From Tilletiopsis washingtonensis (lineage: Eukaryota; Basidiomycota; Exobasidiomycetes; Entylomatales): 64,000 nucleotides of DNA. Location: assembly GCF_003144115.1 (NCBI RefSeq), contig NW_020311999.1, positions 328,239 to 392,238 of the forward strand, in the 5' to 3' direction. Under the pieces are notes generated by a model, which was given only the letters and a program-made list of their open reading frames with translations, did no database searches and was not told where the DNA came from. Positions 3,501 to 63,778 of the stretch are shown piece by piece. Both the position numbers and the translations under genes were made by a program. Every line of letters begins with the position of its first letter. Position 1 is the first letter of the stretch.

Positions 3501-6500
3501 ATGTCGCGCTCGATGAGCCACGCTCCGGCGCCGACGCCCGGCGTGCAGCTCGACAAGTGGGCCGCCGTGCAGGCGCCCCTCTCCGACGCCGAGCGCGCCA
3601 GCGTCAGCCGCCTCGCCGACTGGATCGCCGGTGGGCCGAGCGCAGCGTCGGGGCCAAGCGTGCAGCGCCGGCGCAGCTCTGTCGCTGCGGCATCAGCGCT
3701 GCGCTCCAATGGCGTCGACGCCAACGCAGCCTCCTCGTCGCGTCTGCCGGAGCAGGCTGAGCCGGAGGAGACGCCCGCTGCAGCGCCGAGTCGGGCAGTT
3801 AAGGCTTCCGCGCAGCCTTCGCTGCCGACAGCGCCAATCCATGACGCGCCTGCCTTTCTCGCCTGGTTCGCTAGCCAGCAGGCCTACATCTCCTCGTCGA
3901 CCGAGTCGGCGCACACGCAGGCGCTGGCGGGCATCACTGCCGCCTGCGACGAGGCGGACGCGCTGCTGCAGGAGATTGAGGCGGCGCGTGTGCACATTGC
4001 TGAGCTGCGTGCTGGTGCCCGATACGTCGAGGAGGGAAGTGAAGGGCTGCGAGAAGAGGCGGAGAGCATGGTCGAGAAGATGGTGCGTCAACAAGCCTCG
4101 ATGCCTTGCCCCGCATTGCTAAACCTGCCACGCAGGACCATCTCTCGACGCTGTCCGAAGCCCTGTCGCTGCGGCTCTCCTACTTCTCGATCCTGCCTAC
4201 CTCAACATCCTTCCTCAACTCGCCGTCCGTCACGCTCGTGCTCTCGCCAGACTTCCTGCACACGCTCGACCGTCTCGACGTGGGCCTCGAGTTTGTGCAG
4301 GCGCATCCGCAGTACAAGGACGCCGCGCTGTACCGCATGCGCTTCGAGCACTGCGTTGTGCGCGCTGGCCAGCTCATCCGGCTGTATCTGGTGCAGCGCA
4401 TGCAGCAGCTCGTGCAGGAGACTGGCGACGGGCTGAAGAAGTGGGAGAAGGAGCGGTACGGCAAGGGCGCGGCGGAGAAGAGCCAGGGCAGCGCGGACTC
4501 GAAGCTTCAGGTGAGCGCCAGAGAGAGGCTGTGCCGCGTACTACATGCTCACCTTGTCGCAGGACCTCGCGGATCCGGACCTGCACGGCCTCATGTACGA
4601 CAAGTTCAGCACAGAGTCGATGCAGATGCGGCCGCTGCTGGCCGAGCTCGAGAAGCGCGCCGCTCCGTCGGCGCCTGCCGCCGCCTCGATGCAGCTTTCC
4701 ATCGAGGAGTCCGACAAGGTGCCTCCGATGAATGAAGACGCACTGCTCGCGGACTACTCGATGACGCAGGAGAGCGACGATGGCCGCACAGGGCGGACAA
4801 AGGCATTCGTGTTCTCGTCGCCCGAGTTCGCGGCCATGCTCAGCGAGTGCCGCGCCGCATACTTCGACGCGCGCCGGGCGCTGCTTCTCGGGCTCATTGG
4901 CAGCTGTTTGGCTCGCATCGAAGCGGCCGTCCACGCCGAAGACTCGTCAGCGAGCAGCTCGTCTGCAGACTCGTTCGTTGTACGTCTGGCGCGGCGTGGC
5001 CTCGACTTCTTGCGTGCGCTGTGCGAGTCCGAGTACAAGCTCTGCGACCACTTCTTCGTCGTCGACGATGACGAGCAGCGCGGTGCGACTGGCCAGTCAA
5101 GCGCCGCTGAGCTGCAAGCATACCTCGAGACGATCTGCGCGGCATTGCACGACCGCGTGCGGCCACGCATCCAGAAGGAGACCAGCCCTGCGGTCCTCTC
5201 GCGCATCTGCGCTGCGCTGCTCGAAGTGCCTGCCGCCGAGGAGCCGGATGATGCACCGTCCCGCTCTGCCGAACTTCTGCTGCAGCCTCTGCTGCGACCT
5301 TTGCTCGATGCCGCGCAAGCTCAACTCGTGCTCAAGGCCCGAGAGGACTTTGGCAAGATCGCCGCGCACACGCCAACAGCGGACGACGTCGACTATCCAG
5401 CCAAACTTGGTGGCGCTGCCGGTGCCGCAGCCGCTGCTCATCGACGAGCCAAGAGCAGCATCGGCGGTGCGGGTCTCTTTCAAGCGGCCGAGGCGGCAAG
5501 TGCAATGGCGGCGTCGGCGCAGCGCGCAGAGAACGAGGGCAAGATCCGTCTCTTCACTGCGCCGCCTGCGTCTGTCACGCGCACGTGGTACACGCCCTTG
5601 ACACGCACACTGCAAGGCCTCTCGCTCGTCTACGAGCGCGTGCCCACGAGTGTGTTCTACGACGTAGGCATGAGCGCGGTCGAGGCATGCCGAGCGTCAC
5701 TCGTCACCGGCGCCGAAGCACTGCGTACCGGCGGCGGCGGGCTCGGTACTGGTCGCATCGGGCTTAGCGGCCGTCTCGACGGGCCACTGTTTTGGCTGCG
5801 GCATCTGCTTCTCCTGCGCGAGATCGCTCTTTCGGTGCAGCTGAGCGCAGACACCGGCGGCCACGGCCCAGCGGATCGCATCGCTGCCCTTACAGGCCAC
5901 GCGCGCGGCGCTCCTGCCGCGTCTGCCGGCATGGCACTGGACTTTGCCACGGTCGCGTCCGTCGTCAACGCTCTGTGGGCCGGCACAAGCGCACTGCTTG
6001 CTCCGCGGTCGCTGTACCAGCTCGCAAGAGGCGCAGGTGCGGCAGTCGCGGCGCCAGAATCACCGATGCCGCCCAGCTCGCCTAGAGAGACCTCGCACGC
6101 CGCGATGCAGCAGCTCGAGGAGGACATCCAGCGCGCGTCGACGCAGCTGGTCGCCATCATCGCGGAGAGCACGGCGCTGCCGCTGCGCGTCTACATCTCG
6201 CAGATCAGCCGCACGCCGCTGCCCGCCGCGACCGAGCCGCGCTCGCCGGACGCGCAGTCGCCAGAGGCCGGCGTGACCTCGCCCACCTCGCCGCTTGCGA
6301 AGCGGCGGGCTTCGGAGGTCGGAGCAGTGGGCAAGGCGCGCGGCGCGTACGATGCCTTCTGCAAGTGCACAGAGGTCAATCTAAAGGAGGCACGCAGCGC
6401 CATCCGCGCGTATCTCGAGGACGAGCGGGCGATGGGCAGCCTCGTCGAGCCCGTGCTGGTGAGTCGGCGGTGCACACCTCCGGCCGAACTACCCACTGAC

Positions 6501-6646
6501 GCGCTGCGCATCTGCAGAGCCAAGTCATCGAGAGCTACGAAGCGTTCACAGCAGTCGTTCGCGAGCGGCATCCGGCCGTGGCAGAGTCGGAGCTGCCGGG
6601 CGCTGACGAGATCCGCGGGCGTCTCACGGCGATGCTCACTGGCTGA
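3501..6646 (+). CDS. COG3: Conserved oligomeric Golgi complex subunit 3
   Basis: Sec34-type subunit of the COG tether, which captures retrograde vesicles at the Golgi. Four exons: 3501-4082, 4136-4510, 4563-6458 and 6518-6646; the introns are 53, 52 and 59 nt, and all fall between codons. The product is 993 aa, longer than yeast Cog3 (801 aa), with extra low-complexity sequence in the N-terminal 85 residues. Conserved Sec34 features include the N-terminal helical part (FLAWFASQQAYISSSTESAH), the block LSEALSLRLSYFSILPTSTS at the start of exon 2 and RMRFEHCVVRAGQLIRLYLV. Exon 3 carries the long helical-rod region, and the last exon ends ...GRLTAMLTG. The gene is convergent with the fusion gene downstream, with only 47 bp between stop codons. 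Confidence 0.93.
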
Positions 6647-6693
6647 GCAATGCACACGCGTCACCATCATGAGCTTGTACCGCTGCATTGTGT

Positions 6694-9600
6694 CTAGGCG
6701 AGGCCCATGGCAGCGACCAGATCGCACTGCATGTCGTCTTTGAAGCGTCCGGGATGATCGGGCGGCGCGTCTGCCGGCAGGAAGAGCTCGCTCCACACCT
6801 GACGCAGCTGCACCAGGTCCGAGATGACGACGTCCTGCCGCGCAGCGTTCGTGCCCCGCAGCATCTCGTCGTCGGCGCCTTCGTCCGTGTCGATCCAGCC
6901 GCGGCTGTGCTCGTCGCCGACGAAGCCAATCGAGTAGACCAGGCCGGATGACGTGCCGACGACGAGCGTGTCGGCATCGTGCACGATGCACAGAGGGTTG
7001 TTTGCAGGCTGCGCCAGCGTCTCTGCCTCTGCCTGCCAGGCGCCTCCGACGGGCACCGTGCTGCGCCTTGCGGTCGCGTCAGGCCCGTCAGTCTGCAGCG
7101 TCGAGACATAGAGACGCCGATCGGCGCCCGCACGGCTGCTGAAGCGACTGGCGCTGACGAGGCGCCGCTTGCCCGGGTCCACGCAGCCAGTCGCCGCGTC
7201 CGGGATGCCACGAATGATGTCCACCAGCTGTGGCGGCGCGCCCAGATTGGCCTCGATGCGCGTTGCTCGTGGCTCGTCCGATGCGGCGGACTGCACGCCT
7301 GCCTGCCATGATGCAAGCGACGAGAGAGACGGGCTGCTCGGGCTCGGACTCGGGAAGGAGAGCGAGGCCGACGAGGAGAGGCGGGGCGACGTGGTGAGCG
7401 AAAGGCGCGGCGAGTTGCGAGGCGCGGGCCACGGCGGCGGTGCTGGGCTGCCGCTCGCTCTAGCGGCGCGTCTTTGGTCCGCGACGGCTGCCGGCTGCGG
7501 CCTGGATGGCGTGGCGAGAGATGTCGAGCGCGTGAGCGCATGCATCGGAGCGGCGCTGCGACTTCCTGATGGCGGCGAACGAGCAGACGTTGGCGCGCCG
7601 CCGAGCGAACGCCTTGAAGTGGCGCTCGTCATCGCGGTCGCGTTGCTGGCAACAGACGCGTTGCTCTCGATCGAATCCCGTCGAGCACGTCCAGCCAAGC
7701 TTGGCGAGCTTGCAGCGGCGCTCATGCTGCCCTGTGAAGACTCGCGCCGCGAGCGCAGAGGCGACTCGGCGGCGTCCTTACGCGAGCGCAGTGCGGACGC
7801 ACCGGGCGCGCCTCGCATCGGCGTGCCAGCGCGCGATGCGGTCGGAGAAGGCTCGTCCTCGATGGGCACGACATGCTCTTGCCACTCGAGGTGGATGATG
7901 GCGTCCTTGCTCGCCACGGTCAGCGTGCGCCTTTGCGCCGCAAACCAGCTGTAGTGTGAGATCCTTGGTCAGCTTTGATCGAGCAGTCTCATGCGAGGCG
8001 CAGACCCACAGCATCATGTTCGCATCGCCTCCGAGTCCAGCAAGCTCGCGTGCCTTGGCGCCGCCGCCGGCTAGCTTGCTAATGTGGTACTCTCCGATCA
8101 TCTCCTTGCGTCTAATCGAGAACGTCTGCGCAGCGACGTCCATCAGCAGTATCGCGGCAGCGAGCAGGAGTCGACTCACGCGGATGACAGCGTCGACGGT
8201 GACCGCAACGACCTGGTCGTCATTCACGATGGCCACGCCCAGCGATACGTTGCTCTGCTGGCCCCAGCGGCAGCGTTTCTCGCCGGTACGCCAGTCCCAG
8301 ACTGCACGACAGGTGTCAGCCGCTGCGTGGTCCAGCCCTGCAGCGCGACTCACCGTTAATGGCCTTGTCCTGGCCCACCGACACGAGCACGCCCTTTGGA
8401 CTGAGTGCCAGCGAGCGGATGCCCTTGTTGTGGCCCGTGAAGGTGTGCAGCAGCTCGTAGGTCTTCAGGCTCCAGATCCTGCGTCGGTCTCGCGTCAGCA
8501 GGGCGAATTTTTGGCGAAGCGCGCTGCTCACATGACTCGACCGGTGTCGTACAGACCCGCAGCCAACACGCCCTGCTTCGGCAGAAAGTCCAGGCAGGCA
8601 ATGGCCTTCGCCTTGATGACCTTTGTGCAGCGCACCGTCGGCAGGTCCCATATCCGGATGCTCTCGTCGTAGCTGCCCGTGATGAGCGTGCGGCCCTTGA
8701 GCTTCATGGCCGTGACGAAGCCGGTGTGCCCCGGCATCTGCACGATGCGCTGCGAGACGCCGCGTGCCCAGTTGCGCTCGCGGAAGTAGAGGCCGCGCAC
8801 GAGCGGCTCCCAGCCCTCGGGCGTAGTAGGGGCAACGAGGGGCGACGGGTCGCTCTCCGTCAGCGCTAGGGCATGAGAGCGCCACAGCTCCGGCTCGGCA
8901 GCGAGCTCACGCCACTTCTTCGACACTTGCCGGCAGCGCAGCAACTCGCTGACGGAGAGGCGCGAGAAGATGGCCAGCGTGATGCTGCTGCCGATCGCAG
9001 AGACAAAGTCGTGGCGCAGCCGCATATGCCGCTCGACCGCACGCGCCATGACGCTCAGCTCTGACGGCGACGAGGCGCTGTCGAGCAGGAGACTCAGGAG
9101 GCGCACCCGTGCAGCGGGTGCCAGGGCGCGCAGCTGCTGGCTGACGCCTTCTGCATCGTGCTCGGCGTTGCCATTCGACAGAGCCAGGCTCTCGAGCTTC
9201 GCTGGCGCATTGAAGGCACGCAGCTCGCGCGGCACGAACTCGCCGTTGGTTGGCGGCGCATTGACGGCATCGACTGCCTCCTCCTCGCGGTAGAGCACCG
9301 AGTTGGCCCAGCCGAGGCGCTTGGCGCTCTGAATGTTGAGCGCCGAGTCGTCGACGAACCAGCAGCGCTCGGGCGACGTGCCCACGTAGGAGCAGGCGGC
9401 GTGGTAGAAGCGCGGCTCGGGCTTGCAGGCAAAGTCGGCGTTGCTGTAGTCGCAGAAGACGAGGCCCTCGAACATCGGCAGGATGTTGAGCAGCGTGAGC
9501 ACGCGCAGCGCATGCGTCTTATAGGCGTTCGTCAGCGCCCACACGCGGTACTTGGAGCGGTCGATGTCGCGCAGTAATGCAATAGTCTCGCTGTCGGGCC

Positions 9601-10235
9601 GCAGCACCTGGTCGAGCGGCAAAGAGGCATCACACCGCCGGTCGTAGTCGAGCGGGTCGATGCGGTGGTGCTTGACGAGGCCGCGGATCGCGAGGCCGTA
9701 CGACTTGTAGTAGTGCTGGTGCAGCTTCTCCGCCTCGGCCTCGTCGAGCCCGAGCGTCAGGAAGTAGGCACGGATGCGCGTGGCCATCATCGAGGCGATC
9801 TGCGTCGAGGCCGGGTAGAGCGTATTGTCTGCGCCCCGTCGCCGCGTCTCAGCTCCACGCGAGGCAAGGAGGGATGCAGCTCGGCTCACCGATGTCGAAC
9901 CACACGACGCCCTTCTCCTTGTCCTCCGCCGACGGGCTCAGCGCACCCGGACGCAGCTCCATGGCGCCGACGACCTTGCGCTGCTCCTCGTCCATCAGCT
10001 CGAAGGTGGCCGGAGCAGAGGCAGCTTCCGGTGCGGCTGCGGCAGCGGGCTTGCCTGCGTCCGCCGCTGCGTCTGGCGGCCGTGGCTGGGCATGCTCAGC
10101 CTTGGCAGCCGAGCGCCGCGGGGCTGCTGCGCTGCGACTTGTGCCGTTGAGCTGCTGTGCCCCGGCCGCACCCTGAGCGCTGGCCGTGCCGCCTCGCACG
10201 CCCTCGCTCAGGCGGCCCGTCGTGCTGCGGCGCAT
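6694..10235 (-). CDS. Pyrimidine 5'-nucleotidase (HAD)-F-box-WD40 fusion protein
   Basis: Six exons: 10235-9890, 9828-8532, 8478-8354, 8301-8180, 8125-8010 and 7948-6694, giving 1,086 aa. Residues about 114-300 are an Sdt1/Phm8-type HAD phosphatase with all catalytic motifs: WFDIDNTLYP (D114, D116; split by intron 1), VWALTNAYKT, the KPEP lysine and CWFVDDSALN. The same exon 2 then runs without a stop into a helical segment like the dimerisation D-domain of Met30/Cdc4 F-box proteins (about 345-395). Next come an F-box (about 395-440, FSRLSVSELLRCRQVSKKW) and WD40 repeats from about 485 (GHTGFVTAMKLKGRTLITGS; GHNKGIRSLALSPKG). The C-terminal 300 residues are mostly Ser/Pro-rich. By family, the first half should remove phosphate from pyrimidine nucleotides and the second should be an SCF ubiquitin-ligase substrate adaptor. 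That one polypeptide does both is inferred from the continuous exon. Confidence 0.85.
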
Positions 10236-10527: not shown

Positions 10528-12348
10528 ATGGCGGCCGCTGCGTCTGCAGCCGACGCTGCATCGGCCCTGCCGCCGCTGCCGTCGCTGCTCGCCGCGCTGG
10601 CGCTGGCGTGGTACGCGGCCATCTGGTGCATCTCGCTGCTCGGCCTGCACACGGCGCGCCGCCTCTACAGCCCGCCGATTCCTGCCTCGCCGCTCTCGTC
10701 GCTGGCAGACGACGTGCAGCGCGCTGCAGCGAACGGCACTCCAGCGCAGACTTGCGGCGCATCGGCCAGCCCCAGCGCGCCCGGCGTCTCGATTCTGCGC
10801 CCGCTCGCCGGCCTCGACCACAACCTGCTCGGCAACCTGTGCGCCGCCTTCGAGCAGCGCTACCCGCGCGACTCGTTCGAGATCATCCTCAGCGTGCGCG
10901 ACGAGCACGACCAGGCGCTCGCGGTGGCGCGTGATGTGGCGGCGCGCTATCCGGAGGTGAAGAGCAGGATCGTCGTCGGTGAGTCGTGATGCCAAGAGCC
11001 TGCTTGATGAGGGTGGAAAAGGCATGCAGCTCTATTCTTCCGCTGGGCGTATGGAGAAACGCCGAGGGTCATGTCTCTGCCACTGCCGCTGTCTCGGCTT
11101 TCGCCTCAGTGAGTCGTTGCTCACGCTGCTCGATGCAGGCGACGAAACCGCGGGCGTGAACCCCAAGATCAACAACCTCGTTGTGCCCTACTCGCTGGCC
11201 GCCTTCGACATCCTCTGGGTCCTCGACGCGCAGTGTTCGCTCTCGCCGACGGCGCTGGGCCGTGCTGTCGATGCACTCGTGCGCTCTCCGCCAGCCGTGC
11301 CGAGTCCGCGCTTCCTGCGTCGCCTTCCGCTCTTCGGCGGTGCGACCTACGCACGCGGCAGCACCGCGCGTGTCGGGCTGGTGCACCATGTGCCGCTTGC
11401 TGTCTCGCCATCAGCCAATCTCGGCTCGCAGGTGGAGCGGGCCTTCCTCAGCACCAACCACGCCAAGATGTACCTGGCGATCAACACGCTGAGCGTCGAC
11501 TCGTGCGTGATGGGCAAGTCGAACCTGTTTTGCAAGTCGGATCTGGCGCGCGTGCCCGACGCCTTCTTTGGCGTCGACGAGCAGGGCACGAGCGGCGAGG
11601 CGGGCGCCATTGGCAGCAGTGCCTTTGCCGCGACCGCCTCGACGGAGGGCGTGGCGAGCGGCGCCGCACGGCCACTGGCGCGCTTCTCCATCTACCTGGC
11701 AGAGGACAACATGCTGGCGCTCTCGCTCATGCGGCCACCGCTCGGCCTGCATCACGCGCTGGCGCCCGGCGATGCAGTGCACACGTCGGTCGGCGGCATC
11801 TCGTCGCTGCGCGCCTACGCCTCGCGGCGCATGCGCTGGATCCGCGTGCGCAAGCGCATGGTCCTTGCCGCCACACTGCTGGAGCCCATCACCGAGAGCA
11901 TCGTCGCCGGCCTGCTCGCCGCTTGGGGCCTGCGGCGGCTTGTGCTGGCGCCGCGCGAGCTCGGCGGCACCGCGGAGGCGTGCGCTCTGGCCGCCTTTCT
12001 TGCAGCGCACCACGTGCTCTGGTACAACGTCGACTACGGCGTCATGCTTGCGCTGCGAGCCGGCACGCCGTTACCGCCCAGCGAGCGCGGCGTGTTCCGC
12101 ATTGCGTACGCCGTGCGCGAGCTGCTGGCGCTGCCGATCTGGGTCGGCGCGATGTGCGGCAACACAGGTGCGTCGCTTGCCTTCGCCTCCATGTGCCGCT
12201 TCTCACCCTCTAGTTCGCAGTCACCTGGCGCGAGCAGCGCTTCCGCATCCTGCCGTCCGGTCGAGCAGCGCATGCCGAGCCAGCAGCGCGGTGGCGGCGC
12301 GGCGGCTATGAGCGGATACGAGGCGAGGAAGATGAGCGAGCTGCATGA
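10528..12348 (+). CDS. GCS1: Ceramide glucosyltransferase (glucosylceramide synthase)
   Basis: Transfers glucose from UDP-glucose to ceramide, giving fungal glucosylceramide; a membrane enzyme of the GT21 family. Exons are 10528-10978, 11139-12167 and 12221-12348 (535 aa); the introns are 160 and 53 nt. The N-terminus has a membrane anchor (LAALALAWYAAIWCISLLGL). Then come the family's conserved aspartates: SVRDEHD (D1), the strongly conserved VNPKINNL block, LDAQ (D2) and AEDN (D3, about residue 340). The product-binding (Q/R)xxRW motif is present as RRMRW near 380. The C-terminal half has further hydrophobic segments. The last acceptor was placed at 12220 because it restores the conserved NTVTWREQRFRI. 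The gene is divergent from the fusion gene (292 bp) and convergent with MRP10. Confidence 0.93.
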
Positions 12349-12615
12349 GCCCAATGCATACATTATACCGCTCTGCTTGCGTGGCGGCATCGTGTGACAG
12401 CATGATCCCATTCGCTGCGAGTGTGCACGTATGTGCAGCTGTCGCATCCCTCCTCGTGACTCCCTCTCTGGCCCTCGATGCCATCTCCCGTCAACCTGGT
12501 CGAAGCTGCGCTGGCAGCTGCCTGACCATCCTCCCATCGACCCCAACCGCTCCTTCCATCCCCCTCTCGATCATGCCCCCACTTGCGAAAGCGCCGCTGT
12601 CGGTGCGAGCGCCCC

Positions 12616-20847: not shown

Positions 20848-20903
<56 letters not shown>

Positions 20904-38150: not shown

Positions 38151-38184
<34 letters not shown>

Positions 38185-41199: not shown

Positions 41200-41289
41200 G
41201 AGCCGATCCGGCCACTAAACGCCGCGCTGAGCGTTCCTTACGACGAGCCGATCCGGCCACTAAACGCCGCGCTGAGCGTTCCTTACGAC
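41200..41289. repeat. Two exact 45-bp tandem copies
   Basis: The unit begins gagccgatccggccactaaa and ends gcgttccttacgac. The second copy starts at 41245, and I saw no mismatch between copies. It lies 199-288 bp upstream of the dehydrogenase ATG, a typical place for upstream activating sites. Confidence 0.95.
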
Positions 41290-59238: not shown

Positions 59239-61110
59239 ATGGCCTTCAACGGGAACAATCCCAACCTCTACAATGTCTTCGCCCAGCAGCAACAGCAGCA
59301 GCAACAGCAGCAGCAGCAGCAGCAGCAGCGCCAGGCAGGCATGCAGGGACAGCCGCAGGCGCAGGCGCAGCAGTCCTACGGCAACCTGGCCGGCACCATG
59401 CCGGGCTTTGCGCAGGCGGGCGGCTTCTCCCAGCAGCAGGTGCGCCAGTTTCTGCAGCAGCAGCACGCCAATGCGCAGGGCGGCGTGCAGCAGCCGCAGC
59501 AGCAGCCGGGCATGCAGGGCATGAACCCCAACGTGCTCGGCCAGATGCCCGGCGGCCTGCCCATGCACATGCAGGCGCAGGCCATGCTGATGGGCGCCGG
59601 CGCGGGGCAGATGCCGATGCAGGCGTCGCCGCAGCAGCAGGCAGCCGCCGTCATGCCGCAGGCGCAGCAGTTCCAGCCGCAGCAGCAGGCGCAGGGCATG
59701 CAGCAGCACATGCAGCAGGGCCTCGGCGGCCCGGCAGGCCAGCAGGCCGGCATCGTCTCGGGTGCGCAGGCTGCCGCTGCCGCGTCGCAGGCTGCCGCGA
59801 TGAACCGGCAGCAGGGCTCTCCCGTGCAAGGCGCCGCCACTCCCGTCGCCGGACCGTCGGGCCAGCCAAGGCCGCCGCTCAACGTCAACTCGCTGCCGCC
59901 ACAGCTGCTGGCGGCCGTGCAGCGCGCACGTCAGGGCCAGCTCGACCAGGCGCAGGTTGACAAGCTCAAGTACGCCATCGGCCAGTACCAGCAGCAGCAA
60001 CAGCGCATGCTGCAGCAGCAACAGCAGGGCCAGACGGGCGAGCCGTCGGCGCAGCCTGGCGCCCAGATGGTCGGACAGCCGTCGCAGCCGCAGCCGCAGC
60101 CGTCGCAGCAGCAGCAGCAGCAGCAGCCGCAGCAGCAGCAGCCGCAGCAGCAGCAGGCGCCGCCACAGCGCTCGACGCCGCACATGCAGCAGGCCATGCC
60201 GCAGCCGCTCGCGCAGCAGCCCGGCCAGCCGGCGGGCCAGCAGCCGAACGCACTGGCACAGCAGCGCCTGGCGATGAACAACCCGCAGCAGATGATGCAG
60301 GTCGTGCGCGCCGCGGGCAACCGCGTGGCCGAGCTCGAGCAGAAGATGATCTCGGCCAGTCCGGCAGAGCGCGAGACGCTGCAGAAGGAGATCAACAACG
60401 CCAAGGCCATCCAGGGCCAGATGGCGCAGCGTCTCGCGCAGCTGCAGCGCCAGCAGCAGCAGGCCACCGCCATGCAGGCGCAGCAGCAGGCACAACAGCA
60501 GGCTCAGCAGCAGCAGGCCCAGCAGCAGCAGCAAGCACAGCAGACGCCTCGTCCGCCGAGCGCCAACCCGCAGCTGCAGTCGCCGGCGCTGCGGCCCGCC
60601 TCTGCGCAGGGCAGCGTCTCGGGCCCCAGCGGTCAGCCCGGCAAGCCGGCGCACCCGATGCAGCAGCAGGCACCACCGCAGCAGGCGGCGCAGATGCCCG
60701 TGCAGCCGTCGATACCGACGCTCAAGCCCGATCAGTTCCTGCGCGCCCTCTACGACCTGCACGTCAAGCAGGGCACGCCGAGCGCGGCGCAGGCCAGCGT
60801 GGCGAACCGGCCGCTCGACATGCACCGCTTCTACACGCTCGTGCAGTCGAGCGGCGGCAGCGAGGTCGTCAAGCGCAAGAATGCGTGGGGCGCCATCGCC
60901 GCCGGCCTCGAGCTGCCCACGCAGCTGGCGCCGCACGTCGCCGAGGCGTACCGCATCTCGCTTGCTCCGTTTGAGCAGGTGTGGGTGCGCGCCATTCAGA
61001 CGCAGTACCAGCAGGCGCAGGCCGCGCAGCAGAAGCAGCAGCAGCAACAGCAGCAACAGCAGCAGCAGGCGCTTCAACAGCAGCAGCAACAACAGCAGCA
61101 GCAGGCCGCT

Positions 61111-61152
<42 letters not shown>

Positions 61153-63778
61153 GCGGCACAGCAGCAACAGCAGCAGCTCAAGACGCCGCAGCAGGCCCAG
61201 GGCGTGATTCCCGGCCAGCAGCAGGCGCAGCAGCCTGGACGGCCGAACGGCAGCTTCAGCGGGCCGCCGACGAACATCCCGCAGCAGCTCACGCCCGCAC
61301 AGCTGCAGGCGCTCGGCCTGACGCAGGAGCAGTTCAACCTCATCGTGCAGAGCGGCCAGCTCGGCCAGCTGCGCGAGCGTCAGCAGCAGCGCCAGCAGCA
61401 GCTCGCCCAGCAGCAGCAACAACAGCAGCAGCAGCAACAGCAGCAGGCCCAGCAACAGCAGCAGCAAGGCGGCGCCGCGCCGCAGGGCCAGCAGCAGCCG
61501 GGAGGGTTCCAAGGCGCGGCTCAGCAGCCGTTCAACGCCGCCGCGAACCCAGCCGCACGCTTCCCCGCACCGGGCGCCGCCACGTCGCCGCAAATACCGC
61601 AGGCCTCTGTGCTCAGCCCGAGCAACACGGGCATGCAGCCGCAGCAGCAGCCGCAGCACGGCATGCCCGGCGCGCAGCCGTCGCCTGCCGGCACCGAGCT
61701 GCCGAAGCCGACGCCCGTCAGCAAGGAGCAGCTGGAGAAGGCCAAGGAGGCCATGGCGCGCGTGGACGCCGAGCTCAAGATCACGCGGCGTGAGCAGCTT
61801 TACTGACGAACATGCCTGCACCGTCCGCTGACACTGCCCTCCTGCAGCACGCCTCGAGGTCAAGGAGAACCTCTCGGAGCACGAGAAGGAGCAGATCCTC
61901 TCGCAGATGGGCCAGCTCACGACGATCCTCGACACGGTCAACGCGCTGCTGCCGGCGTTCTACGCGATCAACGGCAACTTCGAGGGCGCGCGGCGCCTCA
62001 AGATCATGGCGTACATGTTCAAGGACCAGCTCGACATGCTGCCGCAGCGCAAGTGCATCCTCGCGCTGAGCGACCTCGACAAGCTCAAGATGCAGATCCA
62101 CCGCTGCATCAACTTCGTCAAGACGCACAACCCGGACCTGACGAGCTACCTGCTGCAGGAGCTCGCCGCCGAGCGCCAGCGCACGCGTCAGCAGCAGCAG
62201 CAAGCTCAGCAGCAGCAAGCCCAGCAAGCTCAGCAAGCTCAGCAGCAGCACTTCCGTGCCATGCAGCAACAGCAGCAGCAGATGCAGCAACAGCAGCAGG
62301 CGCAGCAGATGCAGCAGCAGCAACAGCAGCAGCAGGCGATGCACGCTCAGCAGGCGCTTCTGCAGCAGCAACAGCAGCAGCAGCAATTCCAGGCGCAGCA
62401 GGCCGCGCATGCCCAGGCGCAGCAGGCACAGGCGCAAGCGCAGGCTCAGGCCCAAGCACAGGCTCAGGCACAGGCGCAGGCGGCGCAGGCAGCATCGCAG
62501 ACGCCAGCACAGCCGCAGGCGACGGCCACGCCAGACGAGTCCGAGGAGGCACTCGCTGCGCACGGCATCAAGCGCGGCCTGCGCGTCGAGGACCTCAAGC
62601 CGCCGCCCACGAAGCGTGGCAAGGGCGCCGTCGCGAGCGTGCAGCAGGCCGGTGCGTCGCCGCAGGCCAAGTCGCCGCAGCTGCAGGCCGAGTCGCCGCA
62701 GATCTCGGCCGCCTCGCCGCCCGCGGGCAAGGGCCGCAAGGCGCCCGTCAAGCCAAAAGCAAAGAAGGCAAAGACGGCCGACGAGCCAAAGTCGAAGGCC
62801 AAGACGAGCGCCGACATCATGGCCGAGGTCAAGCGCGAGATCGCTGAGGAAGAGGCGCGCCGCAAGGCCGCCGGCGGCTCGACACCCGCGGCTGCGGTCG
62901 CAAAAGCGTCGCCGTCATCGCTCGCGCAGGGCGGCGCCGAGACGGCGCAGTCGCCCAGCCAGGCGGCCGAGGCTGCGCTCAATGCGCGCCGGCAGCGCGA
63001 GGCCGAGCTGGCGCAGAGCGACCCGGCCGGCCTTGCCGAGTCGGCGTGGCAGGGCCTCTTCTCCAACAGCGCTGCCGATCCGTCGGGCATGGCCGCCATG
63101 ACGGCTTCGCACGCGTCCGCGTCGACGGCAGACGGCAAGACGCTCGACAACCTGCTGTCCATGCTCGGCCAGGGCTCGATCGTGGGCAACGGCGCCTCGG
63201 ACATGTCCAGCCAGCAGGGCGCACAAGCGCCGCAGGCCTCGCACGGCCAGGCGGCAGCTGCGCGCGGCAGCCCGTCGCGGCAGCAGACGCAGCTCGCCGA
63301 CGACCAGGCGGCGGCGGAGCGCGCACGTCTGCAGGCCGAGGCCGATGCCGCCGTCGAGGTCGACTTCTTCGACTTTGACTCGTACATCGAGGACCCGTCC
63401 GAGTTTGCCACGCTGCTCGGCGGCGGCGAGTCGGCCGCGCAGAGGCTCGTCTCGGGCGACGAGCCGCCGGCCGAGACGCCGGAGCTCGTGTCGGGCTCGA
63501 ACCAGTCGTCGACGGCGTCGTCGGCCACGAGCTCGATGATCCTGCAGAAGGCCGCCAGCCTGGGCGGCGTCGGCGGCCCGCTGTCGACGAGTCCGATGGA
63601 CAGCAGCGACGACAGCGAGCCGAGCCCCGACGACCTGCTCAGCTCCATCATGGCCGGCGGCGGCAGCGCTGCCGGCGACGGGCGCACGTCGCAGAAGCGC
63701 AAGAGCCAGGACGACCCCCTCGACTGGTGGGACGCCGACCATGCGCCGCAGCTGCAGCCGTGGGCGATCCTCTCATAG
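59239..63778 (+). CDS. Glutamine-rich ARID protein, probable SWI/SNF subunit
   Basis: Two exons, 59239-61789 and 61848-63778, with a 58-nt intron (1,493 aa). Residues about 495-590 form an ARID DNA-binding domain (FLRALYDLHVKQG, RPLDMHRFYTLVQSSGGSEVV, WGAIAAGLELP, FEQVWV). ARID plus long polyglutamine sequence is the pattern of Swi1/Sol1, the ARID subunit of fungal SWI/SNF remodellers. A second conserved-looking helical block follows the intron at about 851-955 (EKEQILSQMGQLTTILDTVN, FEGARRLKIMAYMFKDQLDM). At least five CAG-coded Q tracts occur (about 59284-59328, 60103-60153, 61033-61166, 61403-61472, 62188-62390). The C-terminus is Lys-rich, then acidic with FFDFDSYIEDP, an activation-domain-like stretch. 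Assignment to SWI/SNF is family inference. Confidence 0.82.
59284..62390 (+). repeat. CAG/CAA polyglutamine tracts in the ARID gene
   Basis: Several clusters of mixed CAG and CAA codons. The mixture of codons reduces slippage compared with the pure (GCT)18 tract at 20848, and implies selection for glutamine rather than simple microsatellite growth. Confidence 0.85.

What the first reader, a model, noticed from the sequence alone, without database searches (positions are those of the whole stretch)
6694..10235. Pyrimidine nucleotidase fused to an SCF F-box/WD40 adaptor
Seen: one 1.3-kb exon (9828-8532) encodes the rest of a complete Sdt1-type HAD enzyme, then a Met30-like dimerisation helix region, an F-box and the first WD40 repeat with no stop or likely intron between them. 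Known: Sdt1/Phm8 are stand-alone nucleotidases, and Met30/Cdc4 proteins are stand-alone adaptors. Inference: the fusion could tie ubiquitin-ligase targeting to nucleotide state, or place a nucleotidase on an SCF complex. All HAD catalytic residues remain, so the enzyme half is probably active.
Basis: partly seen in the sequence, partly recalled or inferred. Interest (0 to 1): 0.8.

Follow-up and report, generated by a model that had tools for sequence, protein, structure and literature searches.

The report
Nucleotidase fused to F-box/WD40 adaptor
In smut fungi and their relatives, the enzyme that strips phosphate from nucleotides is built into the same protein as a part that labels other proteins for destruction; the join is real and shared by many species, but no study of what it does was found.

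Summary
The minus strand of 10235-6694 reads as one six-exon gene (introns 52-61 nt, GT-AG) for a 1,086-residue protein: disordered N-terminus, Sdt1-type HAD nucleotidase, loose linker, helical region, F-box, seven-bladed WD40 propeller with a long disordered insert. Exon 2 (9828-8532) runs from HAD into the propeller without a stop. It is not an assembly artefact: 31 of the 39 proteins found with the whole query carry both HAD and F-box models, in Ustilaginomycetes and Exobasidiomycetes, including Ustilago maydis UMAG_03518. Nucleophile, metal, phosphate and ribose residues are kept in 32 of 32 aligned proteins. No second Sdt1-like gene was found in this genome. Elsewhere the halves are separate: stand-alone nucleotidases in mushrooms, red yeasts and Malassezia; an F-box/WD40 half without HAD in Moniliophthora. 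Best reading: a bifunctional SCF-docked 5'-nucleotidase, both halves keeping their old jobs, with enzyme abundance tied to SCF turnover (inferred). Nucleotide-gated ubiquitination is possible, but the unconserved linker argues against tight coupling. 'Pyrimidine' specificity and 'Met30' identity are not established. The searches made found no paper describing it. New variant of a known kind.

The parts
6694..10235 (-). whole gene, six exons, 1,086-aa HAD - F-box - WD40 fusion protein
   Evidence: gene model; relatives with the same order
9915..10235 (-). N-terminal alanine-rich extension (residues 1-107)
   Evidence: median identity to 31 relatives 17%; low pLDDT at the N-terminus of the model of the Exobasidium relative P0012
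9278..9914 (-). Sdt1-type HAD 5'-nucleotidase domain (residues 108-299), interrupted by intron 1 (9889-9829)
   Evidence: Pfam PF00702; PDB Sdt1/SSM1 3onn E 4.4e-43; fold match of the P0012 model to Sdt1-UMP 3opx, rmsd 1.4 over 195 alignment columns, 42% identity
9829..9889 (-). intron 1 (61 nt), splits the DIDNT motif
8532..9828 (-). exon 2, 1,297 nt, uninterrupted from HAD through F-box into WD40 blade 2
9140..9277 (-). linker (residues 300-345), poorly conserved, predicted disordered
   Evidence: median identity 14%; pLDDT under 50 for 34 of residues 276-318 of P0012
9014..9139 (-). helical, possibly D-domain-like region (residues 346-387)
   Evidence: predicted helices 322-330, 334-347, 350-367 in P0012, pLDDT 59-72; median identity 32%
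8855..9013 (-). F-box (residues 388-440)
   Evidence: Pfam PF12937 47.0 bits; third of 27 F-box-like matches listed for the genome
7879..8734 (-). WD40 blades 1-5 (residues 481-692), with introns 2-5
7255..7878 (-). long disordered Ser/Arg/Pro-rich insert between blades 5 and 6 (residues 693-900)
   Evidence: pLDDT about 30-40 in the equivalent stretch of P0012
6925..7254 (-). blades 6-7 (residues 901-1010), with the SSRAGADR block
   Evidence: kept in the HAD-free Moniliophthora relative, 33% identity over 206 alignment columns, E 1e-20

Best explanation
A bifunctional protein: an active Sdt1/Phm8/Ifn1-type 5'-nucleotidase carried on the substrate receptor of an SCF (Skp1-Cullin-F-box) ubiquitin ligase. 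Shown: one conserved reading frame, intact catalytic residues, an F-box above its cut-off and a complete predicted propeller, no second Sdt1-like gene found in this genome. Inferred: the F-box docks the protein on Skp1; the helices before it may let it dimerise as Cdc4/Fbw7-type receptors do; the propeller recruits its own, unknown, target proteins; the nucleotidase still removes 5'-phosphate from nucleoside (or nicotinamide) mononucleotides. The linker is loose, so the halves probably work as tethered modules. What the fusion adds is most likely stoichiometry and shared fate: nucleotidase level follows the receptor's own synthesis and SCF self-ubiquitination. That fits an enzyme family whose members are short-lived in budding yeast and whose excess activity is toxic in fission yeast. 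The confidence given is for this whole mechanism; that the fusion is a real, conserved single protein I put at about 0.97.
For: Gene model; domains; 31 of 39 whole-query hits carry both HAD and F-box Pfam models (P0001-P0031, precomputed column), and P0046, P0048 and P0056 do so; catalytic Asp114/Asp116, Thr215, Lys251, Asp275/276 and ribose Asp182 and stacking Tyr156 kept in 32 of 32; only one Sdt1-like match in the own genome at E <= 1; one Skp1 match in the genome; model of relative P0012 with HAD, F-box and blades 1-5 mostly near or above pLDDT 90; fold matches to Sdt1-UMP and to Fbw7/Cdc4/beta-TrCP and full propellers; linker median identity 14% against 59-61% in HAD, F-box and blades 1-5. 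Sdt1 half-life about 30 min and Phm8 (measured in low phosphate) about 10 min in S. cerevisiae (PMC13191266, section 7 read); overexpressed active Ifn1 is toxic in S. pombe, the D11A mutant is not (PMC13059787, passages).
Against: No transcript, proteomic, binding or enzyme data were available; neither Skp1 binding nor nucleotidase activity is shown. Self-ubiquitination is assumed from F-box proteins in general. The F-box is weakest and the region before it much altered in Tilletia, and one of the four Tilletia rows aligned (P0033) is predicted without an F-box model, so SCF docking may not be needed everywhere. The helical region is modelled with moderate confidence only. Malassezia keeps the nucleotidase free, so the tether is dispensable in at least one lineage of the subphylum.
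Confidence: 0.5

Rival explanations
1. Nucleotide-gated ligase: the HAD domain is an input sensor. Binding or turnover of a nucleotide (or NMN) changes dimerisation, Skp1 docking or substrate access, as a LOV domain does in plant ZTL/FKF1 or a hemerythrin domain in FBXL5.
For: Same layout (small-molecule domain, F-box, propeller) as LOV/F-box/Kelch proteins (PMC7968664, listing and start of abstract only); the fusion is kept across two classes; ligand pocket residues looked at are invariant.
Against: Linker is disordered and unconserved; catalytic, not only binding, residues are kept in 32 of 32, more than a pure sensor needs.
Confidence: 0.17
2. Passive fusion: two unrelated activities joined by chance, kept because each half is needed, with no functional coupling.
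For: Both halves occur separately in other basidiomycetes; Malassezia has the free enzyme; linker unconserved.
Against: Domain order and near-constant spacing (103-119 residues from motif IV to F-box in 26 of 32; exceptions P0025 70, P0018 135, four Tilletia 219-232) persist in Ustilaginomycetes and Exobasidiomycetes.
Confidence: 0.25
3. Two genes, or two transcripts, run together by annotation or assembly error.
For: No RNA evidence was available here; codon-position signal in the linker is weak.
Against: 31 listed relatives with both domain models, many from separately named species; exon 2 open in 0 of 5,000 shuffles; no Met in the query between residues 234 and 376; a 98-99%-identical exon-2 frame in an unnamed ENA record whose cluster stands for 14 member sequences (P0046; it may be the same species).
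Confidence: 0.03
4. Skp1-bound but not a ligase: the F-box serves a Skp1-only assembly, and the propeller is a scaffold that places the nucleotidase near its users.
For: Of two positions aligned with arginines of the Fbw7 phosphodegron pocket (residue roles recalled), one is Arg569 and the other Gln584, both invariant in 32 of 32, so the pocket differs from Fbw7.
Against: F-box above cut-off and complete propeller, helices before the F-box as in SCF receptors.
Confidence: 0.05

Closest known systems
Sdt1/SSM1, Phm8 (S. cerevisiae) and Ifn1 (S. pombe) 5'-nucleotidases
   Same: HAD fold, DxDxT/C, TNAY, KP and DD motifs; spacing of base, stacking, ribose and metal residues matches that given for Ifn1 (Arg50-Tyr54-Asp80-Asp174 maps to His152-Tyr156-Asp182-Asp276)
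   Different: fused to an F-box/WD40 adaptor; the base-contact residue is His in 32 of 32 fused proteins and in 110 of 119 stand-alone relatives scanned (3 Ala, 2 Arg, 4 unmatched by the pattern), not Arg (Ifn1) or Asn (Sdt1)
Cdc4/Fbw7, Met30 and beta-TrCP F-box/WD40 SCF receptors
   Same: helices, F-box, linking helix, WD40 propeller in that order; the F-box/WD receptors among the best solved relatives by sequence and fold are Fbw7, Cdc4 and beta-TrCP/FBXW11
   Different: N-terminal enzyme, a disordered insert of about 200 residues in the propeller, its own family signature (SSRAGADR block); another F-box/WD40 frame of this genome scores higher against Fbw7. Met30 itself was not compared
Moniliophthora roreri F-box protein P0050
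   Same: same F-box/WD40 half: 37% identity over 412 alignment columns plus the blade 6-7 block
   Different: no HAD domain; long unrelated N-terminus
ZTL/FKF1/LKP2 LOV-F-box-Kelch photoreceptors and FBXL5 (hemerythrin-F-box-LRR)
   Same: small-molecule domain in front of an F-box and a substrate-binding repeat domain (works-like comparison only; abstracts' starts or listings seen)
   Different: input domain and Kelch/LRR repeats are of other families (recalled); here the input domain is an enzyme

Membership tests
Sdt1/Phm8/Ifn1-type HAD 5'-nucleotidase | HAD catalytic motifs (nucleophile DxD, Thr, Lys, DD) intact | tested here: met
   query and 31 relatives, 32 of 32
Sdt1/Phm8/Ifn1-type HAD 5'-nucleotidase | significant similarity over the whole domain | tested here: met
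   3onn E 4.4e-43; 3opx rmsd 1.4 in the model of P0012
Sdt1/Phm8/Ifn1-type HAD 5'-nucleotidase | ribose-binding Asp and base-stacking Tyr | tested here: met
   Asp182 and Tyr156, 32 of 32; roles from PMC13059787 passages
Sdt1/Phm8/Ifn1-type HAD 5'-nucleotidase | pyrimidine (Sdt1) or GMP (Ifn1) preference | not testable with these tools
   base-contact position is His152, neither Asn nor Arg
Sdt1/Phm8/Ifn1-type HAD 5'-nucleotidase | stand-alone small protein (habit of the family, not a requirement for the enzyme) | tested here: not met
   1,086 aa fusion against 219-362 aa in the 119 stand-alone rows listed, some of them partial
F-box/WD40 (FBXW) SCF receptor | F-box above Pfam cut-off | tested here: met
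   47.0 bits against 24.3
F-box/WD40 (FBXW) SCF receptor | WD40 beta-propeller after the F-box | tested here: met
F-box/WD40 (FBXW) SCF receptor | Skp1/Cul1 binding, target ubiquitination | not testable with these tools
   one Skp1 match in the genome is only a precondition
Met30 / Cdc4 orthology | closest to Met30 or Cdc4 among F-box/WD40 genes of the genome | tested here: inconclusive
   no tree of F-box/WD40 families was made; the L001 frame scores 325 bits against Fbw7, this protein's half 143, queries of different length
Cdc4/Fbw7-type dimerisation (D) domain | helical segment before the F-box, homologous to the D domain | tested here: inconclusive
   helices predicted with pLDDT 59-72; sequence matches begin only at residues 380-385, the end of that segment
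Cdc4/Fbw7 phosphodegron receptor | pocket arginines | tested here: inconclusive
   two aligned positions looked at: Arg569 kept, Gln584 not Arg; roles recalled

The most novel reading that the evidence does not exclude
A metabolite-gated SCF ligase: mononucleotide (or NMN) occupancy or turnover in the HAD domain controls which proteins the attached F-box/WD40 receptor sends for degradation, so that a large group of fungi uses its Sdt1-type nucleotidase as the nucleotide sensor of a ubiquitin ligase.
Probability: 0.15. Interest if true: 0.85.

Novelty: new variant of a known kind. Interest (0 to 1): 0.55.

Why it matters
Sdt1-family enzymes release phosphate from nucleotides and, in budding yeast, make nicotinamide riboside; their level matters to the cell. 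Here that enzyme is fixed to a putative ubiquitin-ligase receptor, and this state has been kept across two classes of fungi, including the laboratory model Ustilago maydis. It gives a ready-made case for asking whether nucleotide salvage and protein degradation are coupled, with natural controls: free enzyme in Malassezia and mushrooms, and a free F-box half in Moniliophthora.

Tried and rejected
Assembly or annotation artefact: rejected by relatives under many species names and by the open frame. Second Sdt1-like gene in this genome: none at E <= 1 (six-frame search, one candidate scored). Isn1-type nucleotidase: no match, but nothing rang in the controls either, so this shows nothing. Dating the fusion with a HAD tree: 37 domains of 41 chosen (four dropped because my motif pattern failed: Tulasnella, Laccaria, Mixia, Pseudohyphozyma). 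The backbone is unresolved; against a single origin, the best tree splits the fused proteins (3 changes) and 0% of 200 bootstrap trees hold them as one side of a branch; one clade is not rejected (p-AU 0.344), nor is fused plus Malassezia (p-AU 0.243). So one origin is assumed, not shown. Stand-alone catalytic motifs: 89 of 119 stand-alone proteins passed a strict four-motif pattern; I did not look into the other 30. HAD-free relatives of the F-box/WD40 half: P0050 is the one with F-box and all blocks; P0040, P0041, P0042 and P0044 lack the HAD model but begin inside the HAD domain and are truncated fusions; P0034, P0043, P0045, P0047 and P0049 are pieces without the N-terminal motifs that I did not examine further; more distant F-box/WD40 rows such as P0067, P0074 and P0081 were not pursued. 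Searches scored only the 7,991 and 7,994 candidates sharing most words, so absence elsewhere is not shown. The VIA-align second look listed propellers only. Papers: UMAG_03518 and um03518, 0 papers each; term searches for F-box with HAD or nucleotidase (13 of 13 listed; 20 of 36; 20 of 188; 6 of 6) listed no paper on this protein by title or start of abstract; supplements were not searchable. PMC7991009 (passages) surveys fungal F-box proteins, U. maydis included, and its main text has no 'haloacid', 'hydrolase' or 'fused' as whole words.
Full report
The gene. On the minus strand, 10235-6694 reads as one gene of six exons with short GT-AG introns of 52-61 nt, 1,086 residues. Introns 1-4 were placed by eye at borders that keep the frame and restore motifs, without listing alternatives; the fifth (8009-7949) was chosen from many frame-keeping pairs because it matches the others in size, ends in CAG and rebuilds a WD40 blade. 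It holds the HAD domain from the last part of the DIDNT motif on, the linker, the helical region, the F-box and nearly two WD40 blades. Of 5,000 single-base shuffles of that exon none stayed open, and the other two frames carry 8 and 3 stops; the linker alone would stay open in 29% of shuffles and has a weaker codon-position signal than HAD. The query has no Met from residue 235 to 375, so exon 2 offers no in-frame start for a separate F-box protein that would keep the whole helical region; in 22 of 32 aligned proteins there is likewise no Met between HAD motif IV and that region, in 10 there is.

The fusion is shared. With the whole protein as query, 39 proteins were listed; P0001-P0031 all carry both the HAD model PF00702 and an F-box model in the precomputed column. 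Named sources include Sporisorium, Ustilago, Moesziomyces, Testicularia, Thecaphora, Pseudozyma, Tilletiaria, Exobasidium, Meira, Sympodiomycopsis, Parajaminaea and Tilletia, and Mycosarcoma (Ustilago) maydis UMAG_03518. I looked up three: Thecaphora is Ustilaginomycetes, Tilletiaria and Tilletia are Exobasidiomycetes; the rest are placed from memory. One row, labelled as the fern Adiantum nelumboides, is almost the Meira protein and is taken as fungal contamination. Three more rows with both models (P0046, P0048, P0056) came with the second half as query. I aligned 31 relatives with the query (P0001-P0033 without P0029, which is short, and P0032, which lacks the start of HAD; P0033 has no F-box model): median identity to the query is 61% in HAD, 59% in the F-box, 59% in blades 1-5, 32% in the helical region, 32% in the insert, 14% in the linker.

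The halves apart. With the HAD half as query, 269 proteins passed and 120 were listed; apart from P0046 these are small proteins of 219-362 aa, named pyrimidine 5-nucleotidase in many mushrooms, with red yeasts, Wallemia and five Malassezia among them. Malassezia belongs to the same subphylum, in a third class. A sixth Malassezia protein joins HAD to a mannosidase. With the F-box/WD40 half as query, the one HAD-free relative with F-box and all blocks is P0050 of Moniliophthora roreri, an agaricomycete, alike over the F-box and blades 1-5 (37% over 412 columns) and over the blade 6-7 block. So the parts also exist separately. A HAD tree could not say whether the fusion arose once, or whether Malassezia lost it or never had it: its best tree splits the fused set, 0% of bootstrap trees join it, and the AU test does not reject one clade.

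Is the enzyme intact? Asp114, Asp116, Thr215, Asn216, Lys251, Pro252, Asp275 and Asp276 are the same in 32 of 32; residue 118 is Thr in 31 and Cys in one, as in yeast Sdt1. The paper on the S. pombe homologue Ifn1 (PMC13059787; abstract and passages) names Asp11 as nucleophile, Asp80 for the ribose, Asp174 for the metal, Tyr54 stacking on the base, and Arg50, which sets base preference and is Asn in Sdt1. The spacings (Asp11 to Arg50 39, Arg50 to Tyr54 4, Arg50 to Asp80 30, Asp80 to Asp174 94) place these on Asp114, His152, Tyr156, Asp182 and Asp276 here, with one residue fewer before His152, as in the alignment with Sdt1. This mapping is mine, from spacing and the Sdt1 alignment; the Ifn1 sequence itself was not aligned. 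His152 is invariant in the fused set and is also His in 110 of 119 stand-alone proteins scanned. The basidiomycete enzymes therefore carry their own base-contact residue, and 'pyrimidine' should be dropped until assayed.

Which adaptor is it? The genome has 27 listed F-box-like matches and one Skp1 match. Two further frames with F-box and WD40 repeats (L001, L006) and one F-box frame that matches the Fbw7 F-box (L002) exist. L001 scores 325 bits against Fbw7, the fused half 143, with queries of different length. I therefore call the fused half a divergent F-box/WD40 family and do not name it Met30 or Cdc4. In the alignment with Fbw7, one arginine of the pocket region is kept (Arg569) and another position is Gln584 (roles recalled); both are invariant in the fused set, which suggests a conserved but different target.

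How it most likely works. Both halves are complete, the enzyme half is the only Sdt1-like protein found in the genome, and the join is loose. The simplest reading is a nucleotidase docked on an SCF complex, each half doing its ancestral job, with enzyme amount set together with the receptor, including by self-ubiquitination. In budding yeast Sdt1 has a half-life of about 30 min, lengthened to about 43 min without Pof1, and Phm8 about 10 min (PMC13191266, abstract and section 7); in fission yeast excess active Ifn1 is toxic. A covalent link to a ubiquitin-ligase receptor would be another way to keep such an enzyme low. This step is inference. Nucleotide gating of the ligase is the bolder reading; the LOV/F-box/Kelch proteins have that layout (listing and start of abstract only), and FBXL5 is a second parallel (recalled; listing only). 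The conserved catalysis and the unconserved linker make it less likely.

Novelty. No paper on the U. maydis member or on such a fusion turned up in the held library (listings only, two of them capped at 20; supplements not searchable). Database names such as 'related to pyrimidine 5-nucleotidase' and 'F-box domain-containing protein' each describe one half. It is a new variant of a known kind, an enzyme-bearing F-box/WD40 receptor, not a new kind of system.

Noticed in passing
P0025: A protein labelled Adiantum nelumboides (fern), on a 2.65-Mb contig, is nearly identical in the stretches compared to the Meira-type fungal fusions P0021/P0022: probable fungal contig in a fern assembly.
   Followed up: partly
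P0036, Malassezia cuniculi: The Sdt1-type HAD is joined to an alpha-1,2-mannosidase (GH47) in one predicted protein, while five other Malassezia have it alone: either neighbouring genes merged by annotation or another fusion of the same enzyme.
   Followed up: partly
Tilletia proteins P0027, P0030, P0031, P0033: About 13 extra residues before HAD motif IV and a much longer stretch between motif IV and F-box (219-232 residues against 103-119 in most others); F-box weakest here.
   Followed up: no
window 59284-62720: Dense CAG/GCA arrays with strong A-over-T skew (0.425 in 60001-62000), as might come from a glutamine-rich coding gene.
   Followed up: no
window 41200-41289: Perfect two-copy tandem repeat of 45 bases.
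   Followed up: no
window 38151-38184 and 20848-20903: Run of 34 G, and 18.7 perfect copies of GCT.
   Followed up: no
window 4515-6743 (+) and 10961-12397 (+): Neighbours: a frame with the COG3 C-terminal domain running towards the fused gene, and a glycosyltransferase family 21 frame (ceramide glucosyltransferase type, recalled) running away from it.
   Followed up: partly
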